Positions 9,958 through 36,755 of a stretch of DNA of 36,755 bases are shown here, one piece after another; position 1 is the first letter of the stretch, and each line of letters opens with the position of its first letter. The notes under the pieces are model-generated. The model did not search any database. It was not told where the DNA came from and saw only the letters and a list, made by a program, of their open reading frames with translations. This stretch comes from Oscillospiraceae bacterium (lineage in GTDB: Bacteria; Bacillota; Clostridia; Oscillospirales; Acutalibacteraceae). A program made the translations under genes and the position numbers. The stretch spans positions 1 to 36,755 of the forward strand of contig SVQE01000024.1 in NCBI GenBank assembly GCA_015065505.1, written 5' to 3'.

Positions 9958-10010
9958 ATCGGAGCGAAGCGACCCAAAATTCGTAATTCGTAATTCGTAA
10001 TTCGTAATTA
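9958..10010. repeat. Heptamer repeat locus 1 (AATTCGT x4)
   Basis: A GGAGCGAAGCGACC core remnant is followed by four exact tandem copies of AATTCGT (9978-10005) and part of a fifth. The vanW stop codon falls in the last partial unit. This is a one-armed member of the window-wide heptamer family. Confidence 0.85.
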
Positions 10011-11714
10011 ATATGTTGAGTGTGCCGTATAGTTAACCTTGCCGTCAACCTTTCTCTTCAAGGTGAAGTGGTTACCGCTTCTTGTAACATTAAGGTCAAC
10101 CTTCTTTGGGGAAACATCATAGCAAACATAGTATGAGCAGGTGAGCGAACCGCCGCCGCAGCTCATTTTTATCTTTATGGGATAATTGCTTGTGTTTTTG
10201 AATCTGAAATTCTCGCTGCCCCAGAAGATTGCGGCATCCCTGCCGAGAGGACAGTAGGTTACTCTCTGTGCGTGCTGATGGCGTTCAACAATCTGGAAGT
10301 TTGCTTTAAGAGCAGCGTTGAACATTGTTGAAGCAACCTGGCAAACGCCGCCGCCAAGACCCATTGCGTGGCTGTTGGGACCTGTGAAAACATATGCTTC
10401 CTTATAACCCTTAGCCGATGTTCTCTGACCAACTGTTGCGTTAAACGAGAAGGTATCTCCGGGATAAACGATTGTGCCGTCTATTGCCTTGCAGGCAAGC
10501 TTTAAGTTTGTTGTTCTGTTTGGATTGTTAACATACTGGGTTGTGTAGGTTGCATAGAGCTTGCTGTAGTTTGAAGATATCTTATAGCTTTTCTTGCCGT
10601 AAATAGTGGTTTTATCCTTATTATATCGTCTGAAAGCGCGAACTCTTGCATAATAGGTTTTGTCGCTGCTTTTGATATTAACGGTTTTTGAGGTTTTGCT
10701 TTCGCCCTTTACGGTGAACTTCTTAACATCCTTTTTAAAGCTTTTATCTGTTGAATATTCAACCTCATATCCTGTGCAGCCAACCTTATCCCACTTTATT
10801 GTGAGTTTTTTCTTATCCTTTGATTTGGTAACAGAACGCAGTGAAACGGTGGCGGGCTTAACAACGGTTTTGAAAATCTTGCTTGATTCGCCCGAAATAA
10901 TTGAGCCATCCTTCTTTTTGATTGCTCTTACATAGAAATAGCAATATTCGCCTGCTTTTTTATCGGTTACATTGCAGGAATTCTTATCAACGGTTTTATA
11001 AAGCTTTGCATTTTCGCCCTTTTCGTTGCAGGTGTAAACCCTGTAGCCGTTAACACCAATATCGCTCTGTGATTTCCACTGGATTTCAACCGAGGAGGTT
11101 GTTCTGCTTTTTGTTGTAAAGCCCGTTACCTTTTTGGGATAAATATTGATTTTCTTCTCTTTACTGCCCGAATAGTTGCCCTTGCCCTCAACAACAAGAG
11201 TTGCGGTTTTTATTCCAACCTTATCGTTATTTTTAACAGAAACGGTGTAGTCAACGCCTTCGGTGAGTGCGGTTTCCTTGTATGCAACCTTGAAAGCGGG
11301 AATTTTATTCGGATATGCTTTCTGAATATCGGTAATCTTTATATCCGATGCCTTCATAGCGCACGGAATTATTGAATAATCTGCTGAAAGAATTCCCGTA
11401 TAGTTTCCGATGCCCGTTGCCGTAACAGTTGCAGTTCCCACATTAAGGTTATTCACAAATTCAAGTGTGAAATCCGTGTTTTCAACAAGAGTAACAGTTT
11501 CGTTCTCAAGGGTTTCGGGGTTTGTCTGCGTTATTTTAACGGTTACCTTCTTAGGTGTTCTTGCTTCGCCCGTATATTTAAACTCGTAGCCTGAAAGAGT
11601 TATCTCGCCCGATGAAATATCAACGGGTGCTTCGGCAAACGCCTCGGGTGCAAAGCCGAAGCAGGTGAGAAGCATAATTGCCGCGAGTAAAAGTGATGAT
11701 ATTTTTTTCTTCAT
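10008..11714 (-). CDS. Secreted VanW family protein with bacterial Ig-like and FN3 domains
   Basis: A 568-residue exported protein. Residues 1-27 form a signal peptide (MKKKISSLLLAAIMLLTCF, cleavage near AFA-EA). Two Ig-like repeats follow (28-110 and 115-193, each with GxGNYTG or GKGNYSG), then two fibronectin type III-like domains (195-290 and 290-382). The VanW domain spans about 386-520 with the hallmark GGGVCQVASTMFNAAL near 454. VanW was named from vancomycin-resistance clusters, but its activity is unproven and no vanHAX genes are near. It starts 9 nt after araD with its own AGGAGA site, so it may be read from the arabinose operon, which is odd for a wall protein. Resistance should not be inferred. 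Confidence 0.88.
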   Translation of the reverse strand: MKKKISSLLLAAIMLLTCFGFAPEAFAEAPVDISSGEITLSGYEFKYTGEARTPKKVTVKITQTNPETLENETVTLVENTDFTLEFVNNLNVGTATVTATGIGNYTGILSADYSIIPCAMKASDIKITDIQKAYPNKIPAFKVAYKETALTEGVDYTVSVKNNDKVGIKTATLVVEGKGNYSGSKEKKINIYPKKVTGFTTKSRTTSSVEIQWKSQSDIGVNGYRVYTCNEKGENAKLYKTVDKNSCNVTDKKAGEYCYFYVRAIKKKDGSIISGESSKIFKTVVKPATVSLRSVTKSKDKKKLTIKWDKVGCTGYEVEYSTDKSFKKDVKKFTVKGESKTSKTVNIKSSDKTYYARVRAFRRYNKDKTTIYGKKSYKISSNYSKLYATYTTQYVNNPNRTTNLKLACKAIDGTIVYPGDTFSFNATVGQRTSAKGYKEAYVFTGPNSHAMGLGGGVCQVASTMFNAALKANFQIVERHQHAQRVTYCPLGRDAAIFWGSENFRFKNTSNYPIKIKMSCGGGSLTCSYYVCYDVSPKKVDLNVTRSGNHFTLKRKVDGKVNYTAHSTY

Positions 11715-11723
11715 ACCGTTCTC

Positions 11724-12431
11724 CTATTTTTGTCCGTAGTAAGCGTTTTTGCCGTGTTTTCTCTGATAATGCTTATTCAGAAGATAATCCTCAATTCCGA
11801 TATTATACGATTTATCAAAGGATGCAATGAGCTCGGTCTGATGAGCCATCTTTGCAACCTCTTCAAGAATTAAAGCATTATCAACAGCCTTAAAAGCATC
11901 CTTGCCCCAGGTGAAGGGTCCGTGGCGGTGAATCAAAACGGCAGGGCATTCCTCGGGGGAAATGCCTCTTTTTGCAAAGTCTTCAATAATAACCTTGCCC
12001 GTGTTGAGCTCGTATTCGCCGTTAACCTCTTCCTCGGTGAGTCCCCTTGTGCAGGGAATATTTCCGTTTGCAAAATCCGCATGAGTTGTTCCGTATGCAG
12101 GAACATCCCTGCCTGCCTGAGCCCATGAGCAAGCCCACGGCGAATGAGTGTGAACAACGCCGCCAATTTCGGGAAAAGCGTTATAAAGCGCCATATGCGT
12201 CGGCGTATCGGATGAGGGATTAAGCCTTCCCTCAACCTTGTTGCCGTTTAAATCCATAACAACCATATCATCGGCTGTCATTGTTTCATAGGGTACGCCC
12301 GAAGGCTTTATAACGAAAAGTCCTTTTTCTCTGTCTATACCCGAAACATTGCCCCAGGTAAGAACAACCAAATTATAATCAACAAGCTTTAAATTAGCTT
12401 CAAAAACCTTTTGCTTTAATTCTTCTAACAT
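11724..12431 (-). CDS. araD: L-ribulose-5-phosphate 4-epimerase
   Basis: A 235-residue class II aldolase-fold enzyme that turns L-ribulose 5-phosphate into D-xylulose 5-phosphate, the last step of L-arabinose breakdown. Seen: [11 protein letters not shown] and [10 protein letters not shown] (phosphate and substrate binding), SSDTPTH (acidic and threonine residues), [16 protein letters not shown] with two zinc His, and [11 protein letters not shown] with the third His. Length matches the family (about 231). It follows araA by 28 nt on the same strand, so the pathway genes form one operon with the kinase upstream. Confidence 0.96.
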
Positions 12432-12459
12432 ATATGATTAATCTCCGAATATTATTCAA

Positions 12460-13929
12460 TTACATTCCGATTTTGTATGCAACATCATTAAAGAATAATT
12501 CTTTTCTGAATTCGTTTATTTCGGTGTCTTTATTGATGTGAACAAATTCAATGCCCATAATCTCGGCAAAATCGCGCATATGCTCTGCGGTGAGAGTATA
12601 TGAAAGCACGCTGTGATGTGCGCCGCCTGCATAAATCCACGCTTCAGCAGATGTCTGTAAGCACGGAAGGGGCTTCCACAAAACGCCTGCAACGGGAAGC
12701 TTGGGCATATCATTAACCTGCTCTTTGCATTCAACATCATTAACTATCATTCTGAGTCTGTCGCCCATATCAACAAGGGTTACAACAATGGCATCGCCTG
12801 TTTGCGCCTTGAAAACAAGACGGGCAGGGTCCTCTCTGTCGCCTATTCCGAGGTGGTGAACCTGAATCTTTGCTTTTTCTGCTGCGATTGTGGGGCAAAC
12901 CTCAAGCATATGCGAACCGAGAAGCATTTCGTTGCCCGGCTCGAAATGGTAGGTGTAGTCCTCCATAAATGCAGTTCCGCCGTCCATTCCCTCGCTCATA
13001 AGCTTCATAATTCTTGTCATTGCGGCAACCTTCCAGTCGCCCTCTGCGCCGAAGCCGTAGCCCTGACGCATTAAGTCCTGAGCAGCAAGACCGGGAAGCT
13101 GACGAAGCTCCTGCAAATCCTCAAAGTTTGTGTGGAATGCACCGAAGCCGCCTTTTTCAAGGAATTTCTTAAGTGCAACCTCTTCCCTTGCCTGATAGCG
13201 AACAGACTCGATATTATCTGTATCAATAACATAATTTGCTTCGTATTCAGCCATCTGAGCGTCGATTTCTTCCTCGGTTACGGCGTTAACGCACTTGATG
13301 ATATCGCCTACACCGTAGTGGTCTACCTGCCAGCCGAGCTTAATCTGAGCTTCAATCTTATCGCCGTCTGTTACTGCAACATTTCTCATATTATCCGAAA
13401 TACGAAGAACGCGAAGCTTTCTTGATTCCATAGCGCCTACGGCAGCTCTCATCCAGATGCCGATTTTATTCTGGAAGGCTTCATCCTTCCAGTAGCCTGC
13501 TGCAACCTTCTGCTTCATTCTCATTCTTGCGGTGATATAGCCGTGCTCTCTGTCGCCGTGAGCTGACTGATTGAGGTTCATAAAGTCCATATCAATATCG
13601 CCCCACGGAATATCGCGGTTATACTGCGTATTAACATGAAGGAAGGGCTTTTCAAGTGCGTTGAAGCCTGCAATCCACATCTTTGAAGGTGAGAAGGTGT
13701 GCATCCAGGTGATAACGCCTGCGCAGTTCGGATTTGTGTTTGCTGCCTGCATAACATCAAGGATTTCCTTTGAGGTTTTAACGCAGGGCTTTGCAACAAC
13801 CTTGCAGGGAAGCTTTGCGCTCCACTCTGCAGCCATCTCTGCTGAATGAGCATCTATTGTTTCAAAAATCTCTTCACCGTATAAAAACTGTGTTCCTACA
13901 ACAAACCAAAATTCATAATCTTTAATCAT
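12460..13929 (-). CDS. araA: L-arabinose isomerase
   Basis: A 489-residue cytoplasmic isomerase converting L-arabinose to L-ribulose with a Mn2+ site. The start EFWFVVGTQFLYGEE is the typical AraA N-terminus. The active-site region includes YGFGAEGDWKVAAM with a metal Glu, then EDYTYHF, and GSHMLEVCPTIA with a His ligand; AGGAHHSVLSY near the end carries the last His. Full length for the family (about 490-500). Ribosome site AAGGAG lies 7 nt before the ATG. A 124-bp inverted repeat element separates it from the kinase gene, but both genes look intact. Confidence 0.98.
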   Translation of the reverse strand: MIKDYEFWFVVGTQFLYGEEIFETIDAHSAEMAAEWSAKLPCKVVAKPCVKTSKEILDVMQAANTNPNCAGVITWMHTFSPSKMWIAGFNALEKPFLHVNTQYNRDIPWGDIDMDFMNLNQSAHGDREHGYITARMRMKQKVAAGYWKDEAFQNKIGIWMRAAVGAMESRKLRVLRISDNMRNVAVTDGDKIEAQIKLGWQVDHYGVGDIIKCVNAVTEEEIDAQMAEYEANYVIDTDNIESVRYQAREEVALKKFLEKGGFGAFHTNFEDLQELRQLPGLAAQDLMRQGYGFGAEGDWKVAAMTRIMKLMSEGMDGGTAFMEDYTYHFEPGNEMLLGSHMLEVCPTIAAEKAKIQVHHLGIGDREDPARLVFKAQTGDAIVVTLVDMGDRLRMIVNDVECKEQVNDMPKLPVAGVLWKPLPCLQTSAEAWIYAGGAHHSVLSYTLTAEHMRDFAEIMGIEFVHINKDTEINEFRKELFFNDVAYKIGM

Positions 13930-13962
13930 AATTATTCTCCTTTAGAATTTTAACCATTTCTT

Positions 13963-14086
13963 GCCTCCCTTTACCAAAGGGAGGTGGCGAGCTTGCGAGG
14001 CGGAGGGATTGAACTTCATAAATAGCATTCATAGCCGAATTAATCCCTCAGTCACTTCGTGACAGCTCCCTTTCGCAAAGGGAGCC
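13963..14086. repeat. Paired double-hairpin repeat element between araA and the kinase
   Basis: Two related modules lie in inverted orientation. Left: CCTCCCTTT-acc-AAAGGGAGG, then TGGCGAGCTTGCGAGGCGG and AGGGATT. Right, as reverse complement: GCTCCCTTT-gcg-AAAGGGAGC, then TGTCACGAAGTGACTG and AGGGATT. Each module is a 9-bp hairpin plus a second short hairpin. The stem sequences differ but pairing is kept. It resembles a MITE or BIME; a single related module occurs near 20435. Confidence 0.85.
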
Positions 14087-14109
14087 GAGAATAGGTTTTT
14101 CGCTTCGCT

Positions 14110-15810: not shown

Positions 15811-15930
15811 AAGTTTCAAGTGCCAAGCCCCGAGCTCCGAGTTATCGGGTCGCTTCGCTCCGATTAAAGCTAATTGTCCGAGCGCAGCGAGTAACCTTAA
15901 CTCGGAACTTGCAGCTCGAAACTCGCAACA
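15811..15930. repeat. Heptamer repeat locus 2 (two-armed)
   Basis: Left arm: diverged GAGTT-type units (AAGTTTCAAGTGCC, CGAGCTCCGAGTTATCGG). Core: CGCTTCGCTCC and, inverted, TTGTCCGAGCGCAGCGAGTA. Right arm: AACTCGG, AACTTGC, AGCTCGA, AACTCGC units. The right arm ends at the terminator of the subtilase gene. Confidence 0.8.
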
Positions 15931-21693: not shown

Positions 21694-21726
21694 AAAAATC
21701 CTCTCACAAGTTGAGAGGATTTTTTA
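21692..21726 (+). terminator. Lipoprotein gene terminator
   Basis: ATCCTCTCA and TGAGAGGAT form a 9-bp stem with a 5-nt loop, extended by an A-run and T-run on either side. Confidence 0.92.
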
Positions 21727-21780
21727 GTTGCGAGTTTCAAGTTGCAAGTTGCGAGTTCTCGGTTACTCGCTTTGCACATT
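21726..21780. repeat. Heptamer repeat locus 3 (one-armed)
   Basis: Units AGTTGCG, AGTTTCA, AGTTGCA, AGTTGCG and AGTTCTC, then GGTTACTCGCTTTGCAC, which is the inverted form of the conserved GCAAAGCGAGTAACC core. It begins at the last base of the preceding terminator. Confidence 0.85.
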
Positions 21781-21839
21781 CGATGATGTACAAAAAAATT
21801 ACAATTTTAAAATAGGGGTTTCCATTCCAGTAACCCTTA

Positions 21840-21868
21840 TTGACTTTACTGATTTTAACAATTATAAT
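21840..21868 (+). promoter_or_regulatory. Promoter of the secreted 531-residue protein gene
   Basis: TTGACT, 17 nt, TATAAT. It leaves a 5' leader of about 140 nt (to 22016) with short inverted repeats but no riboswitch class that I recognise. Confidence 0.8.
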
Positions 21869-22016
21869 ATACAATGGTATAAAAATTTGTTTGATATTTA
21901 GCACTTCCCATTGCAAAATATGCGGTCAGCAAGCAAATACCAGCAAACTGAAGCGTTGAGAGCTAAAAACCTCACGCACAAAATAAAATAATTATTTATG
22001 AAAGGATATAATTAAT

Positions 22017-23612
22017 ATGAAAACAATTAAAAAAGCCATTGCGGTTATCTTAACTGTTTTAATGGCGATTGGGGTGATGCCGTTCACGGCTCTTGCTGAC
22101 GATGTATCTTTCACAAAGGTAACGAGTGTGGGTGACATCACGACTGAAAACATCGGCACATGCACAGCTGAAGACGCGAAGGCATGGGCGCTTGCAAACT
22201 GGGATGTTGCACACGACTACGCTTATGATACACATCTCGCTTTCTATTCAAACACCGGCGAATTGAATGTTGTGCTGGTGGACTACGGTATGAATGAACA
22301 TAGTTTTTCGAAAAATTTCGATTATTGTATTAATACAAGTTATTCAATCGTTCACTTAAAAACATGGTATGCTGATGGTGAAGCTATTTGCATTTGCACA
22401 GCGGCAGCTCCGGCACCGGAAGAGCCTGCAGAGGGCGCTGCAGAGGACGGCCCGTTGGTAGGTACTGTTATCAAGATTGGCGACACACTCACACTTGACG
22501 GTGACTATTTTGAGTACGCTCCGGGTCTAAAAACTTCGACAACAGCGGACCTTGAACTCTATCAAATAAGTTACAATGAAGATTTCAATGCTTGGTTATT
22601 TGCTTTTACGCCAAACGGTGTATTTTTGGTCGAGGGCGACGAAACACCTAAACCCGACGGCTTCTATGTTTCCGGCGGTAACGGTACAGAGAGCCATCCT
22701 TATACCTTTGCGCTCCACTACGGTCCTGCTCCTGCAGAGCCGAACAACGGCGCAAGCATAACAGTTGCGGAAACCATCAGCGAGAATTTCTATCTTGATG
22801 ATGATTTCTACGGTGAAACAGCATATGTTTCATTCACATATAACCATAACAGTGATACAAGCGAAACTGCTGATATTTCAACCGATGTTAAGGCTATGTC
22901 ATCTCTTGACGATGCAACAGACGGAAGAAAAGTATTCTCTGTAACCCAGGCTCCTGCTCAGGCAACAGAGCCTATCACAATTAATGTTTACGCAAATGCT
23001 GACGACGCTCAGGCAGGAACAAACGCAATTGATACAATTGATTACAGCGTATACACCTACTGCCGTGATATTATCGAAAACTACGACGGCGAAAAGGCAG
23101 ACGAAATGAAAGCCCTTGCAAAGTCAACTCTTGACTATGCAGCAGCCGCTCAGACATATTTCGGCTACAATACTGATAATATGGCAACAAAGGACGCAAC
23201 AGGCGATTTCTACAACGATGTTGCAAATGCTGATTTAAGCAATGTTGTAGGCGTAAGCGCAGCACCGAGCTGCATTAAGAGCGTTTCACTCGTTGTTAAA
23301 TCGGACCTTGAAATCAATCTTCTTTCAACCGAGCCGATTAGCGTAACAAACGCAAGCATTGATGCAACAAAGGGAACTGAAAGATTTGCTGTTTCAACAA
23401 AACAGAACGGTGATTACTATGTTGTTCATATCGCAGGAATAGAGCCTGCAAATATGGGCAAGGAAATAACAATCAACACCGATAGGGGCAATATTGTTAT
23501 GACTGCAAATTCAGTTGTTAAGATGTTTGCAAACAGCAATAATGCAAATCTTTCAACACTTGCAAAAGCATTGTTTGAATACGGCAATGCAGCAAACGCA
23601 TATTTCGGTTAA
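22017..23612 (+). CDS. Secreted multidomain cell-surface protein of unknown function
   Basis: A 531-residue exported protein. Signal peptide 1-27 (MKTIKKAIAVILTVLMAIG, cleavage near ALA-DD). Residues 30-130 form a domain rich in Cys and aromatic residues. A Pro/Glu/Ala linker is at 131-145. Residues 146-240 form a second module ending VSGGNGTESHPYTFAL, a phrase common in clostridial surface proteins. The C-terminal half (250-531) has a beta-rich part, then two helical YG-type stretches (STLDYAAAAQTYFGY near 367, and AKALFEYGNAANAYFG at the very end) around a beta region, which I have seen in many gut Firmicute surface proteins without a known role. There is no LPXTG or transmembrane anchor. 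A small peptide gene follows 13 nt later. Confidence 0.8.
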   Translation: MKTIKKAIAVILTVLMAIGVMPFTALADDVSFTKVTSVGDITTENIGTCTAEDAKAWALANWDVAHDYAYDTHLAFYSNTGELNVVLVDYGMNEHSFSKNFDYCINTSYSIVHLKTWYADGEAICICTAAAPAPEEPAEGAAEDGPLVGTVIKIGDTLTLDGDYFEYAPGLKTSTTADLELYQISYNEDFNAWLFAFTPNGVFLVEGDETPKPDGFYVSGGNGTESHPYTFALHYGPAPAEPNNGASITVAETISENFYLDDDFYGETAYVSFTYNHNSDTSETADISTDVKAMSSLDDATDGRKVFSVTQAPAQATEPITINVYANADDAQAGTNAIDTIDYSVYTYCRDIIENYDGEKADEMKALAKSTLDYAAAAQTYFGYNTDNMATKDATGDFYNDVANADLSNVVGVSAAPSCIKSVSLVVKSDLEINLLSTEPISVTNASIDATKGTERFAVSTKQNGDYYVVHIAGIEPANMGKEITINTDRGNIVMTANSVVKMFANSNNANLSTLAKALFEYGNAANAYFG

Positions 23613-23625
23613 GGAGGGATAACAA

Positions 23626-23766
23626 ATGACAAAGTTTTATAATGAGCCTGAATTCAAGGTAGTAATAACAAACTCTGAAGATGTTATCACCACCTCGGGC
23701 GAAACAACCTACGAACCCGACAGTTTTGAAACGGAAAACATTCCGTTCCCACAGTTGGGAGTATAA
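23626..23766 (+). CDS. 46-residue peptide of unknown function, co-transcribed with the secreted protein
   Basis: A short gene with a near-perfect ribosome site (AAGGAGG, 8 nt before ATG) directly after the secreted protein and directly before a strong terminator, so it is very likely translated. The peptide begins MTKFYNEPEFKVV, continues ITNSEDVITTSGE, and ends in an acidic, Pro-containing tail (NIPFPQLGV). It has no signal peptide, Cys or membrane segment. I recall similar short peptides with a Y-x-x-P-E-F/M...E-D-V/I-I-T-T-S-G pattern beside clostridial surface proteins, but know no name or role. A RiPP-type precursor or a small regulator is conceivable; no modification enzyme is nearby. 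Confidence 0.8.
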   Translation: MTKFYNEPEFKVVITNSEDVITTSGETTYEPDSFETENIPFPQLGV

Positions 23767-23796
23767 AAAAGAGCGAAGCTTCGGCTTCGCTTTTTT
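23764..23796 (+). terminator. Terminator of the secreted protein-peptide operon
   Basis: 8-bp stem AGCGAAGC/GCTTCGCT closed by a stable TTCG tetraloop and followed by a run of T's; the A-run on the left overlaps the peptide stop codon. Confidence 0.95.
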
Positions 23797-23800
23797 AATT

Positions 23801-24051
23801 AAGAGTTAAGAGTGAAGAGTTGTGGGGCGCGGAAATGCGCCGAAGGTTTAGTATTCATATCATTTAACGAATTTGTAGGGCGCGACGCCCTCGACGCGCC
23901 GTTGCAATAACGCATTTGTTACAATAGCGGATGAATGAAATGAACTCTTCTCTGCGGTGCGTCCGGGGGTCGCACCCTACGAATTGATTAATTGACCGAG
24001 CGCAGCGAGAAACCACAATTCGTAATTCGTAATTCGTAATTTGTAATTTTT
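23801..24051. repeat. Heptamer repeat locus 4, with a nested inverted-repeat element
   Basis: Left arm AAGAGTT, AAGAGTG, AAGAGTT (23801-23821). Right arm AATTCGT x3 plus AATTTGT and AATTTTT (24017-24051), reaching the rpiB stop codon. The core motif ACCGAGCGCAGCGAGAAACC precedes the right arm. The two arms carry different heptamers, so this may be a hybrid of two copies. Unlike the other loci, the middle holds a GTAGGG-ended element. Confidence 0.85.
23825..23985. repeat. GTAGGG-ended inverted-repeat element with an adjoining module
   Basis: AATTTGTAGGGCGCGAC (23870-23886) and GTCGCACCCTACGAATT (23969-23985) are 15/17 complementary and bracket about 116 bp, like a tiny MITE. The first 33 bp from 23875 recur exactly, inverted, at 36723-36755. 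The preceding module (GGGGCGCGGAAATGCGCC through ATTTAACGA) recurs inverted, with a few changes, at about 36590-36646. Confidence 0.88.
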
Positions 24052-27967: not shown

Positions 27968-29137
27968 ATGAAAAACTCAATAACTAAAGATAAGTCGCTT
28001 TCTCATTTTCTGAAGGGCACTGATTTCATCACTCTCTTTTCCGCGATAATTGCCTCGGCTTACGGTCTTGCGCTTGTATACAGCGCAACATATAAAAACC
28101 TGAGCGCAGGCAAGCTTATCACCTCGGATGTCAGGGCAATGATTGTTTCGGTTACAATGGGCTTGATTATTGCAATAGTCGTTTCAAATATAGACTATGA
28201 AATTATTTCAAAGCTGTGGCCGATAATTGCCGCAGGATGCGTGGGACTTATGATTTTCACCCTGTTTTTCGGCGTTGCGCCGTCTGCAAGGCAGGATGCA
28301 AAATCGTGGCTGGATTTAAAAATCTTTTACTTTCAGCCTTCCGAGCTTCTTAAGGTTGGTTTTATTACCTCGTTCAGCTACCATCTTGATTTGGTCAGGG
28401 ATAAAATCAACAAGCTCAAAACAATTATTCCCCTCGTTATTCACGGTGCAATCCCCGTTGGACTGGTTATTCTCACGGGTGACGCAGGAAGCGCGCTGAT
28501 TTTCCTTGTTATGTTTATCGGAATGCTTTTCTTTGCAAGAGTTCATATCGGATACTTTATTGCAGGAATCTGCGCGATGGTTGTAGGCTTTGCGGTTGCC
28601 TGGAGAACGGGCATAATCAGCGGTATTCAGAGGCAGCGAATTGTTGCGCTGTTCTACCCCGAGCAATATGAGGATGTTATGTATCAGCAAACTCAGGGAA
28701 AGATTGCAATAGGCTCGGGCGGTCTTTTCGGTCAGGGCTATCTTCACGGTGATATGACTCAGGCAAAGGTTGGCGGAGTTCCCGAAAACCAAAACGATAT
28801 GATTTTATCGGTTGCAGGCGAGGAGCTTGGATTTATAGGTGCAATAGCAGTTATTCTGGTGCTCGGATTTTTAATTATCAGAATGCTGAAAACCGCAACG
28901 GGCGCAAGGGATAATGTTGGTTATCTGATGTGCAGCGGAATTTCGGTTATGCTTTTTGCCCAGGTGCTTGTTAATGTCGGAATGGAGCTTTCGCTTCTTC
29001 CCTGTATCGGAATAACCCTTCCCCTGTTTTCATCGGGCGGTTCATCGTCGCTTTGCATATATCTTGCAATCGGAATAGAGCTGTCGGTTTACCGATATTC
29101 GCAAACATCAAAGGAAACGCTTTTCTATACGAAATAA
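27968..29137 (+). CDS. rodA: RodA/FtsW/SpoVE family peptidoglycan glycosyltransferase, probably RodA
   Basis: A 389-residue SEDS-family membrane protein with about ten helices. It polymerises lipid II into glycan strands and works with a class B PBP; in the elongasome it is guided by MreB. Landmarks: KIFYFQPSELLKVGFI, ILTGDAGSALIF, the extracellular loop VPENQNDMILSVAGEELGFIG, and LPLFSSGGSSSLCIYLAIGI near the end. The central region GIQRQRIVALFYPEQY is typical of RodA. AAAGGAG lies 6 nt before the ATG. It stands alone with its own promoter and terminator; RodA rather than FtsW is inferred from sequence feel, as no division genes are near. Confidence 0.92.
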   Translation: MKNSITKDKSLSHFLKGTDFITLFSAIIASAYGLALVYSATYKNLSAGKLITSDVRAMIVSVTMGLIIAIVVSNIDYEIISKLWPIIAAGCVGLMIFTLFFGVAPSARQDAKSWLDLKIFYFQPSELLKVGFITSFSYHLDLVRDKINKLKTIIPLVIHGAIPVGLVILTGDAGSALIFLVMFIGMLFFARVHIGYFIAGICAMVVGFAVAWRTGIISGIQRQRIVALFYPEQYEDVMYQQTQGKIAIGSGGLFGQGYLHGDMTQAKVGGVPENQNDMILSVAGEELGFIGAIAVILVLGFLIIRMLKTATGARDNVGYLMCSGISVMLFAQVLVNVGMELSLLPCIGITLPLFSSGGSSSLCIYLAIGIELSVYRYSQTSKETLFYTK

Positions 29138-29168
29138 AAGCTGTGCAGTTTTTTTGCACAGCTTTTTA
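29136..29168 (+). terminator. rodA terminator
   Basis: AAAAGCTGTGC, a 9-nt loop and GCACAGCTTTT form an 11-bp stem ending in a T-run, overlapping the rodA stop codon. Confidence 0.92.
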
Positions 29169-29372
29169 AGTTGCGAGTTTCGAGCTTCGAGTTCCGAGTT
29201 CTCGGGGCTGCGCCGCAATTATATTAAGGGTTGAGGGTGGAAGGTGTGAGATTTTAAAATAATATCATCAAAAAAGAGCTGCAACAGCAGCTCTTTAATA
29301 CTCTTAACTTATTGTCCGAGCGAAGCGAGTATCCGAATACTCGGAACTCGGAACTCGGAACTCGAAGCTTAG
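29168..29372. repeat. Heptamer repeat locus 5 (two-armed)
   Basis: Left arm AAGTTGCGAGTTTCGAGCTT, CGAGTTCCGAGTTCTCGGGG with GCTGCGCCGC. Right arm TTGTCCGAGCGAAGCGAGTA, TCCGAATACTCGG and then AACTCGG x3. The left arm starts at the rodA terminator and the right arm ends 4 nt from the permease stop codon, so the element fills the whole convergent gap. Confidence 0.88.
29269..29296 (-). terminator. Terminator of the ABC permease gene, inside the repeat locus
   Basis: AAAGAGCTGC/GCAGCTCTTT, a 10-bp stem with a 4-nt loop, followed on the minus strand by six T's. Confidence 0.78.
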
Positions 29373-29375
29373 TAA

Positions 29376-30339: not shown

Positions 30340-30831
30340 TTATCTGAAGGTTTCAGCGATATCAAGCGCAGCTTTTCTTGCGGATAAATCGCCGTCTATA
30401 ACATAGTCTGCAGCGGCAAGATATTTATCTTTTCTTTCGTTATAAAGCTGCTCGGCTTTTTCCCTGTCCTCAAAAAGAGGTCGGTTGTGATTTGTGCCTA
30501 TTCTGTCGCAGATAACCTCAAACGAAGCATCAAGAAAAACAATCTTTCCGCCCTCTTTGAGCACCTTTGCGTTTCTTTCAAAGGTAAGCGCACCGCCGCC
30601 CGTTGAAATAACGCAGTTTTTCATTTTTGAAACCTTTTTGCAAGCCTCGTATTCAAGCTCTCTGAAATAGTCTTCCCCGCGAGACGCAAAAATTGCTTTA
30701 ATAGCAATTCCCTGTTCTTTTTCTATCAATTCATCGGTGTCGATAAATTTTCTTCCCATTATTTTCGCAAGCTCTTTACCGACAACGGTTTTACCGCAGC
30801 CCATAAAGCCGCATAATATGATGTTATTCAT
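30340..30831 (-). CDS. aroK: Shikimate kinase
   Basis: A 163-residue cytoplasmic kinase that phosphorylates shikimate at O3 in the chorismate pathway. Seen: Walker A GFMGCGKTVVGKELA near 8-22, FIDTDELIE (substrate Asp), FRELEYEAC (substrate Arg), ISTGGGALT (glycine triad), and the LID region TNHNRPLFE. Length is typical. AGGAGG lies 5 nt upstream of the ATG. aroE lies upstream on the same strand, separated by a heptamer repeat locus, so the two were probably once, and may still be, an operon. Confidence 0.95.
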   Translation of the reverse strand: MNNIILCGFMGCGKTVVGKELAKIMGRKFIDTDELIEKEQGIAIKAIFASRGEDYFRELEYEACKKVSKMKNCVISTGGGALTFERNAKVLKEGGKIVFLDASFEVICDRIGTNHNRPLFEDREKAEQLYNERKDKYLAAADYVIDGDLSARKAALDIAETFR

Positions 30832-30858
30832 ACATTCCTCCTTGTAGGTGGATCATTG

Positions 30859-30984
30859 CTAAGTTTCAAGTTGCGAGCTACAAGCTGCGAGTTCTCGGGT
30901 GCTGCGCACTGCTATTAATAATTATTGTTCGAGCAAAGCGAGTAACCGACAACTCGGAACTAGAAACTCGCAACTCGCAACTTA
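30859..30984. repeat. Heptamer repeat locus 6 (two-armed), overlapping aroE
   Basis: Left arm AAGTTTCAAGTTGCGAGCTA, CAAGCTGCGAGTTCTCGGG with GCTGCGCAC. Right arm TTGTTCGAGCAAAGCGAGTA, ACCGACAACTCGGAACTAG, AAACTCGCAACTCGCAACTT. The right arm is read as the final codons of aroE. Confidence 0.88.
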
Positions 30985-31793
30985 TCTATGATACTCTCAA
31001 TCTCTTCCTTCTCAAACCTGACGCCGTTCCAAATCTCCTGCGCTGCTGCGGCTTGCCAGACAAGCATTGAAAGCCCGTTCTGATATTTAATTCCCGCTTC
31101 TCTTGCATATCTGAGCAAAATGGTTTCATATGGATTATAAATGGAATCAAAAACGGCTTTGGCACTTTCAACCGTTTTTCTGTCGAGTGGACAGCCGTCA
31201 ACATTCGGAAACATTCCGAGCGGCGTTCCGTTTATAATAAGATTATAGCCGCTGCCTGCGTCGCTTAGTAAAACGATACTGCACTCAGCGCCGAGCTTTT
31301 CTTTAAGCTCGTTTTGAAGAACTCTGCATTTTTCAAGGCTTTTTTCCCTTACTGCAAGTGTTACCTCACAGCCTGCAAGCGCGCTTTCAAACGCAAACAT
31401 TCTTGAAACGCCGCCGCAGCCGCAGATAAGAACTCTGCCTTCAAGCGCAATATCGGCTGAATCAAGCGCATTTAAAAAGCCCGTGCAATCGGTGTTGTGC
31501 CCCGTTAATATTCCGTCTTTAACTTCAACTGTGTTCACCGCACCGAAAAGCGCTGCTTTTTCGGAAAGCTTATCAAGATAAGGAATAATCGCTGATTTAT
31601 GCGGAATGGTAACATTGAAGCCGCTGAGCTTTTTAAGCATTTCTATTTTATCGCAGAGGCTTTCGGGCTCGATTTCCAAAAGCTCATAAATCCCCTGCGT
31701 TTTTGAAATTTCAAACAGCTCTTTATGAATAATCGGGGAAAGCGAATGCCCCAGAGGGTAGCCTGTTAATGCATATCTTTTTTCACAACTCAT
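30960..31793 (-). CDS. aroE: Shikimate dehydrogenase
   Basis: A 277-residue NADPH-dependent enzyme reducing 3-dehydroshikimate to shikimate. Seen: LTGYPLGHSLSP (substrate-binding Ser pair), FNVTIPHKSAI (catalytic Lys), GHNTDCTGF (catalytic Asp), the dinucleotide loop LICGCGGVSRMFAF, and the late GLSMLVWQAAAAQEIW. The ATG of MSCEKRYAL is taken as start because it fits the family, though its GGTGAT site is weak; an ATG 12 codons upstream would overlap the divergent acpP promoter. The last eight residues, DKLRVASF, are translated from the heptamer repeat arm, which also supplies the TAG stop. Confidence 0.94.
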   Translation of the reverse strand: MSCEKRYALTGYPLGHSLSPIIHKELFEISKTQGIYELLEIEPESLCDKIEMLKKLSGFNVTIPHKSAIIPYLDKLSEKAALFGAVNTVEVKDGILTGHNTDCTGFLNALDSADIALEGRVLICGCGGVSRMFAFESALAGCEVTLAVREKSLEKCRVLQNELKEKLGAECSIVLLSDAGSGYNLIINGTPLGMFPNVDGCPLDRKTVESAKAVFDSIYNPYETILLRYAREAGIKYQNGLSMLVWQAAAAQEIWNGVRFEKEEIESIIDKLRVASF

Positions 31794-31812
31794 ATAATCA
31801 CCAAAAAAATCA

Positions 31813-31839
31813 TTGACAAAACAAATCAAAGTTTATAAT
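31813..31839 (+). promoter_or_regulatory. acpP promoter
   Basis: TTGACA, a short 15-nt spacer, TATAAT. Both boxes are perfect but the spacer is 2 nt below optimum, which would weaken or condition the promoter. It lies in the 99-nt gap divergent from aroE. Confidence 0.7.
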
Positions 31840-33809: not shown

Positions 33810-33838
33810 AAAATTATTAAAGAGTTTTTAATTAGTTC

Positions 33839-33866: not shown

Positions 33867-33897
33867 AAAGCGAATTTAATTTAAGGAGTATAAAACT

Positions 33898-35061
33898 ATG
33901 GCAAAAATGGTATGCCCTTGGGGATTAATCACTGATTTTGTAACCGACGCTTTTGTTGGCTACGGCATTCCCGAGGAAGAAGCAAAAATGTGCACAGACG
34001 TTCTTCTTGAATCAGATAAAAGAGGAATTGAAAGCCACGGCTGTAACAGATTCAAGCCCATTTATTTAGACAGAATCAAGGCAGGAATCCAGTCACCCAC
34101 AACCAACTTTGAGATTCTCAAGGAAACCGAAACAACTGCAGTTGTTGACGGTCACAACGGAATGGGTCAGGTTATCGGCACAAAGGCTATGCAGATGGCT
34201 ATTGATAAGGCTAAGAAATACGGTATGGGTATGGTTGTTGTTCGTAATTCCTGCCACTACGGTATTGCAGGCTACTACACCTCAATGGCAACAGAAAACG
34301 GCTGCATCGGTATGACGGGAACAAATGCGCGTCCCTCAGTTGCACCCACCTTCGGAACAGAGGGTATGTTCGGAACAAACCCGTTCACACTCGGCGTTCC
34401 CTCGGACGAGGCATTCGACTTTAACTTTGACTGCGCAACCTCAATCACCCAGAACGGTAAGATTGAATACTATGCAAGAATTGATGAGCCCGTTCATCCC
34501 GGAACAATCATCAATATCGACGGAACACCCGTTGAAGGCGACGCAGGCGTTGCACTCGGCAAAATCAGAAACGGCACAGCTGCTTTAACAACTCTCGGCG
34601 GTATCGGCGAGGCTCTCGGCGGCTATAAGGGCTACGGCTTTGCTATGTTCGTTGAGTTCTTATCCTCAGTTCTTCAGGACGGCGAATACGGAAAGGCACT
34701 TGACGGTAAGGACGAGGAAGGCAATATCAGACCTTATCACCTCGGCCACTTCTTCATCGCAATCGACACAAACCACTTCCTCGGCGAAGAGCTTTGCAGA
34801 AAAAAGACAGGCGATATTATCAGAACTGTTCGCGCTTCAAGAAAAGCACCCGGCGAAGAGAAGATTTATATCGCAGGCGAAAAGGAATACAACATCTGGA
34901 AAGAGCGCGAGCCCAGCGGTGTTCCGATTAATGAAAGCGTTCAGGGCGAGCTTAACGCAGTTAGGGACGAGCTTGGTCTTGACTACACATTCCCGTGGGA
35001 AGAGGGATATAACGGCTACGAAAGCGATTATGTTCCTTCAGCACATATAGAAAGAAAGTAA
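33898..35061 (+). CDS. Ldh2/MDH2 family malate/L-lactate-type dehydrogenase
   Basis: A 387-residue NAD(P)-dependent oxidoreductase of the LDH2/MDH2 family (Pfam Ldh_2), unrelated in fold to classical lactate or malate dehydrogenases. Seen: KRGIESHGCNRFKPIY (substrate Ser-His-Gly block), VVVRNSCHYGIAGYY with the likely catalytic His, TNARPSVAPTFGTEGMFGTNPF, and LGGYKGYGFAMFVEFLSS. AAGGAG lies 9 nt before the ATG. Family members act on malate, lactate, sulfolactate, ureidoglycolate or 2,3-diketogulonate. A malic enzyme next door favours malate and oxaloacetate, but that is inference. Confidence 0.92.
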   Translation: MAKMVCPWGLITDFVTDAFVGYGIPEEEAKMCTDVLLESDKRGIESHGCNRFKPIYLDRIKAGIQSPTTNFEILKETETTAVVDGHNGMGQVIGTKAMQMAIDKAKKYGMGMVVVRNSCHYGIAGYYTSMATENGCIGMTGTNARPSVAPTFGTEGMFGTNPFTLGVPSDEAFDFNFDCATSITQNGKIEYYARIDEPVHPGTIINIDGTPVEGDAGVALGKIRNGTAALTTLGGIGEALGGYKGYGFAMFVEFLSSVLQDGEYGKALDGKDEEGNIRPYHLGHFFIAIDTNHFLGEELCRKKTGDIIRTVRASRKAPGEEKIYIAGEKEYNIWKEREPSGVPINESVQGELNAVRDELGLDYTFPWEEGYNGYESDYVPSAHIERK

Positions 35062-35062
35062 T

Positions 35063-35178
35063 TAGTGAAGAGTGAAGAATGAAAAGTGAAGAGTTTCGGG
35101 ACCTGCGGTCGGCTATTATAATCGGGCGCGGGCAGAGCCCGCCATCAACTCTTAACTCTTAATTCTACACTCTTAACT
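35063..35178. repeat. Heptamer repeat locus 7 (two-armed, AACTCTT type)
   Basis: Left arm AGTGAAG, AGTGAAG, AATGAAA, AGTGAAG, AGTTTCG. Right arm AACTCTT, AACTCTT, AATTCTA, CACTCTT, AACT. The arms are roughly complementary when inverted. The short core holds a GGGCGCGGGCAGAGCCCGCC hairpin. The left arm begins 2 nt after the upstream stop codon. The right arm runs into TATAAT (35178-35183), which could serve as a -10 for the malic enzyme gene. Confidence 0.85.
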
Positions 35179-35204
35179 ATAATAAAACGAAAGGTTTATT
35201 ATTT

Positions 35205-36383
35205 ATGGATTATCGTAAGGAATCACTCAGACTTCACGGCGAATGGAAGGGCAAGGTTGAGGTTGTTGCCAGAGCTAAGGTTGGCGACAGAGATGCTCTT
35301 TCACTTGCATACACCCCCGGCGTTGCAGAGCCCTGCCTTGCAATCGAAGAGGATTACTCAAAGAGCTGGGAGCTCACACGCCGTTGGAATATGGTTGCCG
35401 TTATTACAGACGGCACCGCAGTATTAGGTCTCGGCGACATCGGTCCCGAGGCAGGAATGCCTGTTATGGAGGGCAAATGTGTTCTTTTCAAGGAGTTCGG
35501 CGATGTTGACGCATTCCCTCTCTGCGTAAGAACAAAGGATGTTGATGAAATCGTTGAAACTATTTACAATATCAGCGGTTCATTCGGCGGAATCAACCTT
35601 GAGGATATTGCCGCACCGAGATGCTTCGAGATTGAAGAGAAGCTCAAGGAGCGCTGCGACATTCCGATTTTCCACGACGACCAGCACGGAACTGCAGTTG
35701 TTGTTTCTGCTGCACTTATCAACGCAACAAAGCTTATCGGCAAGCCTATTTCACGCTGCAAGGCTGTTATCAACGGCTCGGGCGCTGCAGGCGTTGCAAT
35801 CGCTAAGCTTCTTATGACACTCGGTCTTAAGGATGTTATTCTTTGCGACAGAACAGGCGCTATCTATGAAGGCAGAGAAAACCTCAATCCTTCAAAAGAG
35901 GCTATTGCAAGGGTTACCAACAGAGGAATGACAAAGGGCGGTCTTGAAGAGGCAATCAAGGGCACTGATATTTTCATCGGTGTTTCCGCACCCGGTGTTC
36001 TCACACAGGAAATGATTAAAACAATGAATCCCGACCCGATTGTTCTTGCCATGGCTAACCCCACACCCGAAATTATGCCCGACCTTGCTAAGAAGGCAGG
36101 TGCTAAAATCGTCGGAACAGGCCGTTCGGACTTCCCGAATCAGATTAACAACGTTGTTGCCTTCCCCGGCATTTTCAGAGGTGCGCTCGATGTTCGCGCA
36201 AGCGCTATTACAGAGAATATGAAAATCGCTGCCGCTTATGCTATCGCATCACTTGTTGATGAAGACAGACTTGAGCCCGATTACATTCTCCCCTACGCTT
36301 TCGACCCGAGAATTAAAGACACCGTTGCAAAGGCAGTTGCAGAAGCTGCAATCAAGGACGGCGTTGCAAGAATAAAGAAATAA
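35205..36383 (+). CDS. Malic enzyme (NAD(P)-dependent, decarboxylating)
   Basis: A 392-residue short bacterial malic enzyme that converts malate to pyruvate and CO2. Seen: LAYTPGVAEPCLAI near 38 (catalytic Tyr), VITDGTAVLGLGDIGPEAGM, PIFHDDQHGTAVVVSAAL (metal-binding Asp pair), the dinucleotide loop VINGSGAAGVAIAKLL near 190, and LAMANPTPEIMP. Length fits the single-domain group without the phosphotransacetylase tail. The ribosome site is a modest AAAGG 10 nt upstream. A strong terminator follows. Cofactor choice cannot be told by eye. With the Ldh2-type enzyme before it, it suggests a malate node between pyruvate and oxaloacetate. Confidence 0.96.
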   Translation: MDYRKESLRLHGEWKGKVEVVARAKVGDRDALSLAYTPGVAEPCLAIEEDYSKSWELTRRWNMVAVITDGTAVLGLGDIGPEAGMPVMEGKCVLFKEFGDVDAFPLCVRTKDVDEIVETIYNISGSFGGINLEDIAAPRCFEIEEKLKERCDIPIFHDDQHGTAVVVSAALINATKLIGKPISRCKAVINGSGAAGVAIAKLLMTLGLKDVILCDRTGAIYEGRENLNPSKEAIARVTNRGMTKGGLEEAIKGTDIFIGVSAPGVLTQEMIKTMNPDPIVLAMANPTPEIMPDLAKKAGAKIVGTGRSDFPNQINNVVAFPGIFRGALDVRASAITENMKIAAAYAIASLVDEDRLEPDYILPYAFDPRIKDTVAKAVAEAAIKDGVARIKK

Positions 36384-36387
36384 GTTA

Positions 36388-36421
36388 AAAAGCCCGCAGG
36401 AAAAATCCTGCGGGGTTTTTA
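36388..36421 (+). terminator. Malic enzyme gene terminator
   Basis: CCCGCAGGA, loop AAAA, TCCTGCGGG: a 9-bp GC-rich stem followed by G and a run of T's. Confidence 0.95.
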
Positions 36422-36451
36422 TTATTCCGGTTTTTCATATTATTTAAAAAA

Positions 36452-36546
36452 GCGATATATTGCGCGAGACGCAATGCGATATTTTGAACCTTGTTCAAAG
36501 CGATATTGTTTGCAAAGCAAACAGCGATATTTTTTGCAAGCAAAAA
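36452..36546. repeat. GCGATAT-hairpin array, exact 24-nt period
   Basis: GCGATAT occurs at 36452, 36476, 36500 and 36524. After each comes a 16- or 17-nt perfect hairpin of different sequence: ATTGCG-cgaga-CGCAAT, TTTGAAC-ctt-GTTCAAA, TGTTTGC-aaa-GCAAACA, TTTTTGC-aa-GCAAAAA. It lies downstream of a terminator in a non-coding stretch. Confidence 0.93.
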
Positions 36547-36576
36547 GTTAATATACCAACAACCGCAAGGGTATAA

Positions 36577-36755
36577 TTGTAGGCGCGGCGCCCTACAAAT
36601 CGTTAAATAATATGAATACTAAACCTTTGGCGCATTATCGCGCCCCGAGAACGCGCAACTCGAAACGCGCAACGCGCAACTATGTATACAGGGGTCAGAC
36701 CCCTGTATACGCTAAGGCGTTGTTGCAACGGCGCGTCGAGGGCGTCGCGCCCTAC
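36577..36755. repeat. Mosaic repeat tract: GTAGGG module, heptamer locus 8, 13-bp palindrome, GTAGGG module
   Basis: TTGTAGGCGC/GGCGCCCTACAA is a collapsed inverted-repeat pair (36577-36598). About 36590-36646 matches, inverted, the module at 23825-23880. Heptamers ACGCGCA, ACTCGAA, ACGCGCA, ACGCGCA follow at 36651-36678. GTATACAGGGGTC-a-GACCCCTGTATAC is a perfect palindrome at 36684-36710. The last 33 bp are an exact inverted copy of 23875-23907, cut by the window edge. No gene is visible here. Confidence 0.88.

What the first reader, a model, noticed from the sequence alone, without database searches (positions are those of the whole stretch)
9958..36680. A dispersed family of 7-bp tandem-repeat elements with changing heptamers but a constant core
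Eight loci (9958, 15811, 21726, 23801, 29168, 30859, 35063, 36651) carry tandem 7-mers. Most have one or two arms around a core close to TTGTCCGAGCGAAGCGAGTA followed by ACCG. The 7-mer differs between loci (AATTCGT, AACTCGG, AACTCGC, AACTCTT, ACGCGCA) yet keeps an AAnTCnn-like frame. In two-armed copies the arms are inverted, so the whole can fold into one long imperfect stem. Unit length stays at 7 while its sequence is homogenised within an arm, which suggests copying or slippage with a selected period. Cyanobacterial STRR heptamers are the nearest thing I know; I know no name for this clostridial family.
Basis: partly seen in the sequence, partly recalled or inferred. Interest (0 to 1): 0.85.

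Follow-up and report, generated by a model that had tools for sequence, protein, structure and literature searches.

The report
Heptamer-armed dispersed repeat elements
Scattered between the genes of this bacterium are scores of small DNA elements that end in a seven-letter word repeated about four and a half times, a pattern whose word changes between related species more than its form does, which suggests a small mobile element with a still unknown partner enzyme.

Summary
All eight window loci carry period-7 arms. In fetched loci of this genome 58 of 89 arms hold exactly five ARYT frames (32 bp), 26 fewer, 5 more; a frame-free measure puts 34 of 67 at 29-35 bp, 27 shorter, 6 longer. Of 72 sites chosen only by the hairpin "core", 67 are followed by such an arm (random 170 of 7,200); in four other species of the genus 16 of 21 are, mostly with other heptamers, length there less fixed. 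The long-stem reading fails: arms of one element match no better than arms of different elements (22.79 v 22.82 of 32, p=0.52). Elements are intergenic, enriched near terminators, filled or empty at one orthologous spot between species, and sometimes bracket gene cargo. RAYT genes exist but carry other palindromes; no RVT_1 match in 8 of 9 carriers; no target duplication. Best reading: a REPIN-like non-autonomous mobile element made of hairpin-plus-arm halves, mobiliser unknown. Closest kin: cyanobacterial heptamer/SDR elements (recalled) and Xanthomonas GGGAATC pairs. New variant of a known kind.

The parts
9959..9973 (+). cap hairpin, type TCGGAGCGAAGCGACCC
9978..10009 (+). 32-bp arm, AATTCGT x4 + AATT; overlaps the stop codon of the VanW-domain gene 10008-11714 (-)
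15812..15843 (-). left arm, 32 bp (AACTCGG type)
15849..15863 (-). cap hairpin, TCGGAGCGAAGCGAC
15877..15891 (+). cap hairpin, TCCGAGCGCAGCGAG
15899..15930 (+). right arm, last tetramer degenerate (AACA)
21726..21757 (-). 32-bp arm directly after the T-run of a terminator-like hairpin; its cap (about 21760-21776) is decayed; left boundary of a 2.3-kb stretch absent from G006 and G038
23797..23821 (-). arm, AATTAAG/AGAGTTA type (25 bp), directly after the T-run of a terminator-like hairpin
23826..23841 (-). cap hairpin GGCGCGGAAATGCGCC
   Evidence: read by eye
23995..24009 (+). cap hairpin ACCGAGCGCAGCGAG
24017..24048 (+). 32-bp arm, AATTCGT; right boundary of the stretch absent from G006 and G038
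29169..29200 (-). 32-bp arm one base after the T-run of a terminator-like hairpin
29207..29215 (-). cap hairpin (GGC-GCA-GCC on the outward strand)
29315..29329 (+). cap hairpin TCCGAGCGAAGCGAG
29338..29369 (+). 32-bp arm, AACTCGG, first tetramer TACT
30862..30893 (-). 32-bp left arm
30899..30909 (-). cap hairpin (GTGC-GCA-GCAC on the outward strand)
30928..30942 (+). cap hairpin TTCGAGCAAAGCGAG
30951..30982 (+). 32-bp right arm; the stop codon of the ORF 30960-31829 (-) lies inside it
35064..35095 (-). 32-bp left arm, AGTGAAG
35100..35110 (-). cap hairpin (GACC-GCA-GGTC on the outward strand)
   Evidence: read by eye
35128..35142 (+). cap hairpin GCGGGC-AGA-GCCCGC
35147..35178 (+). 32-bp right arm, AACTCTT; whole element 1 substitution in 117 columns from its G006 counterpart
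36629..36644 (+). cap hairpin GGCGC-ATTATC-GCGCC
   Evidence: read by eye
36650..36681 (+). 32-bp arm, AACGCGC

Best explanation
It is a small non-autonomous mobile element built like a REPIN but of other parts. The unit is a half-element read outward from an AT-rich centre: a small hairpin ('cap', often a GNA triloop such as GCGNAGC, GTGC-GCA-GCAC, GACC-GCA-GGTC), then about CCGA, then an arm of heptamers, usually four plus four bases (32 bp). Two halves back to back make the full element; single halves also occur. I infer that the arm is the end recognised by an enzyme acting in trans, seven bases per subunit or step, and that the cap marks the strand as a fold in single-stranded DNA (or RNA). 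Copies lie in intergenic DNA, more often than chance beside terminators, without a target duplication, and two halves can bracket gene cargo. Shown: architecture, dispersal, presence/absence between species, intergenic bias, clustering of arm length. Inferred: mobility in trans, the role of the arm, the single-stranded step. The enzyme was not found.
For: Cap-selected sites carry the arm in 67 of 72 cases in this genome (random windows 170 of 7,200) and 16 of 21 in four other species (69 of 2,000); lag-7 match 0.68 against 0.17-0.25 at other lags in this genome (0.18-0.26 in the others); the averaged signal spans 32 bp and stops. Five frames in 58 of 89 arms, more in 5 of 89; the reversed-sequence control gives no run of five or more. 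Similar elements lie in unrelated flanks (by eye). Orthologous spots: the site at 35061 is filled in G000 and G006, differently filled in G038 and G035, without element in G015 and G019; at 29140-29370 and 30831-31000 G000 and G038 carry different arms. Arms are 14% covered by ORFs of 100 aa or more against 84% of the same loci (98 arms). Terminator-like hairpin outward within 28 nt in 17 of 71 arms against 151 of 2,200 random non-coding positions, p=8e-6. GNA triloops on the outward strand in 69 of 85 caps, 4 on the other strand, 9.0 expected (biased by site choice); in 26 distinct caps without GCGNAGC 10 against 2.2 expected, 4 on the other strand.
Against: No transposase or recombinase tied to the elements was found. 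No target duplication: best flank match 1.58 bases on average against 1.94 for permuted pairs, p=0.91, n=19. No empty site in a near-identical strain, so no insertion was seen to the base. Arm length is not strictly fixed: frame-free, 27 of 67 shorter than 29 and 6 longer than 35 in this genome, 2 and 5 of 16 in other species (the measure stops early at mismatches). The element at 35062-35178 is nearly identical in G006 (1 substitution in 117 columns) while flanks differ (36 substitutions in 286 columns), which a neutral old insertion does not explain. Caps are not all GNA hairpins (16 of 85 without one). Single-strand folding of three half-elements is mixed: z -2.09, +0.78, -2.88; in two the cap pairs with the arm rather than with itself.
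Confidence: 0.52

Rival explanations
1. Replication slippage with a preferred step of seven bases makes and erases the arrays; the caps are repeats that happen to sit beside them, and no transposition is needed.
For: A survey cited in PMC4679880 found heptanucleotides the most abundant class in most repeat-rich genomes and proposed a polymerase footprint; PMC4692102 repeats the idea (passages). Elsewhere AATTCGT arrays run from the query minimum of 32 to 629 bp (132 arrays in 115 loci). Units are more alike within an arm than between arms. Arms of about 25 and 39 bp occur beside the same cap in other species.
Against: Arm length clusters at 32 bp in this genome (58 of 89); cap and arm are tied at a short, nearly constant distance (67 of 72); the same imperfect arms recur at several loci.
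Confidence: 0.2
2. A structured RNA: the elements work in transcripts, as 3'-end protectors or processing sites after terminators or upstream of ribosome sites.
For: They lie at gene ends and before ribosome-site-like sequence (by eye; intergenic); near-identity of one element between species could be constraint.
Against: Arms of one element do not covary: 22.79 v 22.82 of 32 identities, wobble pairs 25.2 v 25.4. The two caps have their GNA form on opposite strands. At the 29137 spot 5 of 7 other genus loci read (L090-L093, L096) have no element. No Rfam match at gathering score in the window.
Confidence: 0.14
3. REPs/REPINs moved by a RAYT (REP-associated tyrosine transposase).
For: Back-to-back hairpins in extragenic DNA as in REPINs (PMC3116915, passages). 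Long Y1_Tnp genes, picked by hand, co-occur with the cap: 7 of 9 such genomes against 8 of 51 others, p=0.00045; with any Y1_Tnp p=0.24 (chosen after the fact and not corrected for kinship). Heptad arrays lie within about 1 kb of 5 of 20 RAYT-like genes, one of them in this genome (L237).
Against: The four full-length RAYT-like genes of this genome are flanked directly by other palindromes such as GTATACAGGGGTCAGACCCCTGTATAC. Heptad arrays are no denser near the 20 RAYT-like genes than in the rest of those loci (5 in 44,956 bp v 5 in 39,239 bp). Carriers G028 and G033 have no PF01797 match and G057 one weak one.
Confidence: 0.05
4. A reverse transcriptase of the telomerase-like (DRT10/UG) kind writes the arms from a short A-B-A' template that lies beside a stem-loop.
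For: Arms have the form (A-B)n-A with A=4, B=3, n usually 4, directly beside a hairpin; [quoted passage not shown] Heptamers change wholesale while the form stays.
Against: RVT_1 (PF00078) has no match in this genome and in only 1 of 9 genomes with three or more caps, against 15 of 51 others. Genomic insertion of DRT10 products is not mentioned in the passages read.
Confidence: 0.05

Closest known systems
Cyanobacterial tandem heptamers (STRR) and small dispersed repeats (SDR; Elhai et al. 2008): recalled, paper not held
   Same: As recalled: tandem heptamers with small hairpin repeats of differing sequence and shared structure next to or inside them. Tested here: the heptamer AATTCGT is shared with many Nostocales records.
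   Different: As recalled, SDRs are inserted within heptamer runs; here the hairpin is joined to one end of an arm at a nearly constant distance, two such halves back to back.
Xanthomonas GGGAATC repeats (Rehm et al. 2015, PMC4692102: passages and section 10)
   Same: Heptamers, mostly four units, intergenic (89% and 93%), often as inverted pairs (70 cases in Xcc, 75 in Xac), differing between sister species at the same genes.
   Different: One G-rich heptamer proposed to form G-quadruplexes; 2 to 26 units; no hairpin cap described in that section.
TAACTGA repeats of Beggiatoaceae (MacGregor 2015, PMC4679880: abstract and passages)
   Same: TAACTGA read as AACTGAT fits ARYT-NNN; shared with cyanobacteria and Bacteroidetes; [quoted passage not shown]
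   Different: Mostly just upstream of start codons; no inverted pairs with hairpin caps in the passages read.
REPIN/RAYT (Bertels and Rainey 2011, PMC3116915: passages; author names recalled)
   Same: Two inverted hairpin units around a variable spacer, extragenic, dispersed.
   Different: No heptamer arms in the passages read; here the RAYT-flanking palindromes are others.
DRT10 telomerase-like reverse transcription (PMC12632851, preprint: passages)
   Same: Tandem product of (A-B)n-A form, stem-loop beside the template, free template sequence.
   Different: 9-nt repeats in cDNA of the system described; no RVT_1 match in 8 of 9 carriers here.

Membership tests
REPIN/RAYT | Two inverted extragenic hairpin units around a spacer | tested here: met
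REPIN/RAYT | Same palindrome flanks a RAYT gene in the genome | tested here: not met
   the four full-length RAYT-like genes of G000 carry other palindromes; no excess of heptads nearby
REPIN/RAYT | RAYT present in carrier genomes | tested here: inconclusive
   no PF01797 match in G028 and G033; present in others
MITE | Terminal inverted repeats | tested here: met
   outward arms; but the two arms often are of different heptamer types
MITE | Target-site duplication | tested here: not met
   19 two-armed elements, mean best flank match 1.58 v 1.94 permuted, p=0.91 (offsets 0-2, exact, up to 10 bases)
MITE | Parent transposon with the same ends | not tested
Cyanobacterial SDR/STRR | Tandem heptamers in intergenic DNA | tested here: met
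Cyanobacterial SDR/STRR | Small hairpins of differing sequence with compensatory changes | tested here: inconclusive
   10 of 26 distinct non-GCGNAGC caps have a GNA triloop v 2.2 shuffled (max 6); mean longest stem 3.77 v 3.04
Cyanobacterial SDR/STRR | Hairpin unit inserted inside a heptamer run | tested here: not met
   caps lie beside arms; what is seen nested in an arm is another repeat (L216)
Slippage microsatellite | Open-ended copy number | tested here: inconclusive
   58 of 89 at 5 frames, 5 of 89 above; 5 of 16 above 35 bp in other species
Telomerase-like (UG/DRT10) product | Reverse transcriptase in carriers | tested here: not met
   RVT_1 in 1 of 9 carriers with three or more caps; sensitivity of RVT_1 to UG RTs not checked

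The most novel reading that the evidence does not exclude
The arm is written or read by a machine that works in steps of seven and usually counts to four: each half-element is a hairpin plus an end of (A-B)4-A, A=4 and B=3 bases, whose letters are free. This would be a new class of miniature mobile DNA whose ends are defined by period and length and not by sequence, possibly made from an 11-base template beside a stem-loop as in telomerase-like reverse transcription, and the same machine could underlie heptamer arrays (AATTCGT, AACTCGC) in many phyla.
Probability: 0.1. Interest if true: 0.92.

Novelty: new variant of a known kind. Interest (0 to 1): 0.6.

Why it matters
Heptamers were reported as the most abundant class in most repeat-rich bacterial genomes of a survey cited in PMC4679880, and the papers read offer no settled origin. 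Here they are a defined part of a dispersed element with a hairpin partner, in a genus where the letters change between species more than the form does. That turns an old oddity into a testable question: what recognises or makes about 32 bases of period seven? It also adds a further lineage to cases in cyanobacteria, Xanthomonas and Beggiatoaceae.

Tried and rejected
Long-stem folding of the whole element: rejected. RAYT as mobiliser: weakened on flanking palindromes and on density. Reverse transcriptase: no RVT_1 match in this genome and in 7 of the 8 other carriers with three or more caps. Target duplication: none. Cap 14-mer as a marker outside the genus: 45 of 295 genomes of the order hold it, but of the 20 loci fetched the 19 from other genomes had no heptad arm within 50 nt, best 14 of 25 lag-7 matches, so the cap alone is not specific there. 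Viral contigs: no match for CCGAGCGMAGCGAGTAACC. Plasmids: with one element as query, 2 records, both heptamer matches (Pseudoalteromonas, Roseibium). The gene inside the 21.7-24.0 kb stretch (531 aa, signal-like start by eye) has no Pfam or NCBIfam match and one weak PHROG match of unknown function (E 0.005). AATTCGT arrays: 2 of 295 genomes of the order including this one; the shorter 18-mer in 6 of 60 of the genus, all six among the 15 cap carriers (Fisher p=1e-4).

Biases to know: most own-genome loci were chosen by GAGCGNAGCGA, so cap counts are inflated; 8 of 93 distinct halves could not be oriented and were dropped there; sites with N or too near a contig end were dropped and only two cap patterns were used, so none of the G033 loci gave a site. 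By my own reading of the 21 sites in other species, 10 arms are 32 bp, 3 about 39, 3 about 25, 1 is interrupted and 4 have none. and the loci are samples. The 19 elements were hand-picked as two-armed without a nested insert. The genus sample is 60 genomes (41), the order sample 295, drawn by the tool. On checking, the arm length in other species proved less fixed than I had first written; I therefore lowered the best explanation from 0.55 to 0.52, the RNA reading from 0.15 to 0.14, the novel case from 0.12 to 0.10 and the interest from 0.62 to 0.60, and raised slippage from 0.15 to 0.20. Paper searches were those; one search found no paper with the letters of the AATTCGT array in that library.
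Full report
What is there. The window (contig C9 of an unnamed 2.31-Mb, 95-contig, 89%-complete assembly) holds period-7 arrays at all eight places named. Oriented outward from the element's centre each half reads: AT-rich centre, small hairpin ('cap'), about CCGA, then an arm. In fetched loci of the same genome 98 arms score at least 18 of 20 in an ARYT-NNN frame. With a looser segmentation 58 of 89 arms hold exactly five ARYT frames, i.e. 32 bp, 26 of 89 fewer and 5 of 89 more; the reversed-sequence control gives 13 runs, none of five or more. A measure that ignores the frame and stops at mismatches puts 34 of 67 arms at 29-35 bp, 27 shorter and 6 longer.

Independent test. Sites were chosen by the cap alone and the bases after it were examined. 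In this genome 67 of 72 distinct sites carry a heptad arm starting within 8 nt, against 170 of 7,200 random windows; the match at lag 7 is 0.68 and at other lags 0.17-0.25, and the averaged signal stops after 32 bp. In loci from five other species 21 sites qualified, all from four of them (G028, G049, G051, G057); 16 of 21 carry an arm (random 69 of 2,000), mostly with other heptamers, such as AATTCCG (G028), AACGCGA (G049, G051), CATTTAT and CACTGTC (G057), besides AATTCGT (G049, G051). There 9 of 16 arms are 29-35 bp, 2 shorter, 5 longer; by eye 10 are 32 bp, three about 39, three about 25. Arms without that cap are seen in G005 (TTAGGTG), G006 (CATTTTG) and G038 (AATTTTC), 32 bp or near it by eye. 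So the letters change between and within species and the form largely stays.

What fails. The arms were thought to pair into one long stem. For 19 two-armed elements the identity of one arm with the reverse complement of its partner is 22.79 of 32, and with arms of other elements 22.82 (p=0.52); allowing G-U pairs changes nothing (25.2 v 25.4). One element can carry two heptamer types. Units within an arm are more alike than units of different arms (5.37 v 4.62 of 7), but imperfect arms such as AATTCGTAATTCGTAACTCGTAATTCGTAATT recur at several loci, so many arms are copied with the element rather than made afresh at each place.

The caps. Read outward, many are mini-hairpins with a GNA triloop: GCGNAGC with all four N, GTGCGCAGCAC, ACGAAGT, GGCGCAGCC, GTTGCAAAC, GACCGCAGGTC, GTCTGCAAGAC. 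On the outward strand 69 of 85 caps have one, 4 of 85 on the other strand, 9.0 expected by shuffling; site choice inflates this. Among 26 distinct caps without GCGNAGC it is 10, 4 and 2.2, and with a stem of three or more 4, 1 and 0.45. Other caps are longer hairpins with other loops. That d(GCGNAGC) is an unusually stable DNA hairpin is recalled (one search showed a listing only). Predicted single-strand folds of three half-elements are mixed, and in two of them the cap pairs with the arm.

Where they lie. Arms are 14% covered by ORFs of 100 aa or more against 84% for the same loci; 11 of 98 lie wholly inside such an ORF. A terminator-like hairpin lies within about 28 nt outward in 17 of 71 oriented arms, against 151 of 2,200 random non-coding positions (p=8e-6). 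At 21726, 23797 and 29169 the arm follows the T-run within a base. At 10008 and 30960 an ORF's stop codon lies at or in an arm. No target duplication: mean best flank match 1.58 against 1.94 permuted, p=0.91, n=19.

Comparison between species. Best matches in the sample come from G006 and G038; their matching segments are 68-91% identical. Between the Ldh_2 and malic-enzyme genes (35061-35205; domains) G006 has the same element, G038 a different nested one, G035 another repeat, G015 and G019 none. The G000 and G006 copies differ by 1 substitution in 117 columns, the flanks by 36 substitutions and 10 gap columns in 286; recent arrival in both or constraint could explain this, and I cannot tell which. 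The stretch 21726-24048, bounded by inverted arms and holding a 531-aa gene, is missing in G006 and G038; G006 has a lone CATTTTG-type arm at that place. In G038 the spot at 29137-29370 holds about 3.2 kb with genes between inverted arms, where G000 has 137 bp between its arms.

Distribution. CCGAGCGMAGCGAG is in 15 of 60 genus genomes (this one 34 copies, G057 20, G049 13, G051 12, G006 and G033 11, G028 and G038 9, G015 3, six others 1-2), with no hit for the reversed pattern in any. AATTCGTAATTCGTAATT is in 6 of 60, all six among those 15. Across the order the cap word is in 45 of 295 genomes, but 19 of 19 fetched loci from other genomes lack an arm, and the AATTCGT array is in 2 of 295. 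Of 132 such arrays 65 are 32-34 bp and one is 629 bp; shorter ones were excluded by the query. AACTCGC arrays are in one Pseudoalteromonas and one Roseibium plasmid.

Candidate machines. PF01797 (Y1_Tnp) is in 31 of 60 genus genomes and five times here. The four full-length RAYT-like genes of this genome are flanked by palindromes of the GGGGTCAGACCCC or GGGGACGTACCCC kind, so those, not the heptamer elements, look like their REPs. Of 20 RAYT-like loci fetched, five have a heptad array within about 1 kb (L237 of this genome, L241, L243, L247, L254), which is no denser than the rest of those loci (5 in 44,956 bp v 5 in 39,239 bp). Long Y1_Tnp genes do co-occur with the cap (7 of 9 v 8 of 51, p=0.00045; any Y1_Tnp p=0.24), a comparison chosen after the fact. 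PF00078 (RVT_1) has no match here, and one among the nine genomes with three or more caps, against 15 of 51 others. Other transposase families were not searched.

Reading. The best fit is a non-autonomous mobile element with REPIN-like geometry: outward half-elements, each a hairpin plus a heptad end of usually 32 bp. Dispersal and species differences are shown; the enzyme, the single-stranded step and the part played by the arm are inferred. Clustering of length in this genome argues against slippage alone; the looser lengths in other species leave it some room. A bolder reading is that the form (A-B)4-A beside a hairpin is the product of a templated repeat writer like DRT10 (PMC12632851, passages); absence of RVT_1 from most carriers counts against it.

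Known relatives. Rehm et al. (PMC4692102, passages and section 10) describe Xanthomonas GGGAATC heptamers, mostly four units, 89% and 93% intergenic, 70 and 75 inverted pairs, differing between sister species. MacGregor (PMC4679880, abstract and passages) describes TAACTGA repeats shared with cyanobacteria and Bacteroidetes, with no mechanism evident. Elhai et al. 2008 on cyanobacterial SDRs within heptamers is recalled and could not be opened. The present elements share traits with these but add the hairpin joined at a nearly constant distance, the clustering at 32 bp, and the change of heptamer under a largely constant form; hence 'new variant of a known kind'.

Noticed in passing
window 36684-36710: GTATACAGGGGTCAGACCCCTGTATAC palindrome right after a heptamer arm; the same palindrome flanks a RAYT-like gene in this genome (L237), so it is a likely RAYT-cognate REP.
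   Followed up: partly
L236, L237, L238, L239: Four RAYT-like genes (241-251 aa) in one genome, each flanked by its own palindrome (GGGGTCAGACCCC/GGGGTCTGACCCC or GGGGACGTACCCC cores with different outer bases).
   Followed up: partly
window 13945-14105: Another dispersed-type repeat (CTCCCTTT..AAAGGGAG with a CACTTCGTGA hairpin) lies between two genes and is absent at that spot in G006, G038, G033, G015 and G019.
   Followed up: partly
window 21726-24048: A 2.3-kb stretch bounded by inverted arms with a 531-aa gene with a signal-like start (no Pfam match) is missing in G006 and G038; possible cargo.
   Followed up: partly
window 35062-35178: The element differs by 1 of 117 columns from G006 while flanking DNA differs by 36 substitutions in 286 columns.
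   Followed up: partly
L216: In G038 a separate repeat (GTTCGTTTGTGAGCGCTGCC..GTTGGTCG) is nested inside an AATTACG arm; similar sequence neighbours several arms in this genome (by eye).
   Followed up: no
window 10008-11714: A VanW/fn3-domain gene whose stop codon abuts a heptamer arm is missing at the syntenic place in G006 and G038 but present in G033.
   Followed up: no
window 23875-23913 and 36717-36755: GGGCGCGACGCCCTCGACGCGCCGTTGCAA is a further repeat, seen twice in the window in opposite orientation (by eye).
   Followed up: no
L291, L286: In G051 and G049 cap-plus-arm halves occur as head-to-tail tandems (spacing about 65-90 bp).
   Followed up: no
L256: In a same-family genome the cap word is part of another palindrome-like repeat (GTCATTCCGAGCGAAGCGAGGAATC..) without heptamers.
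   Followed up: no
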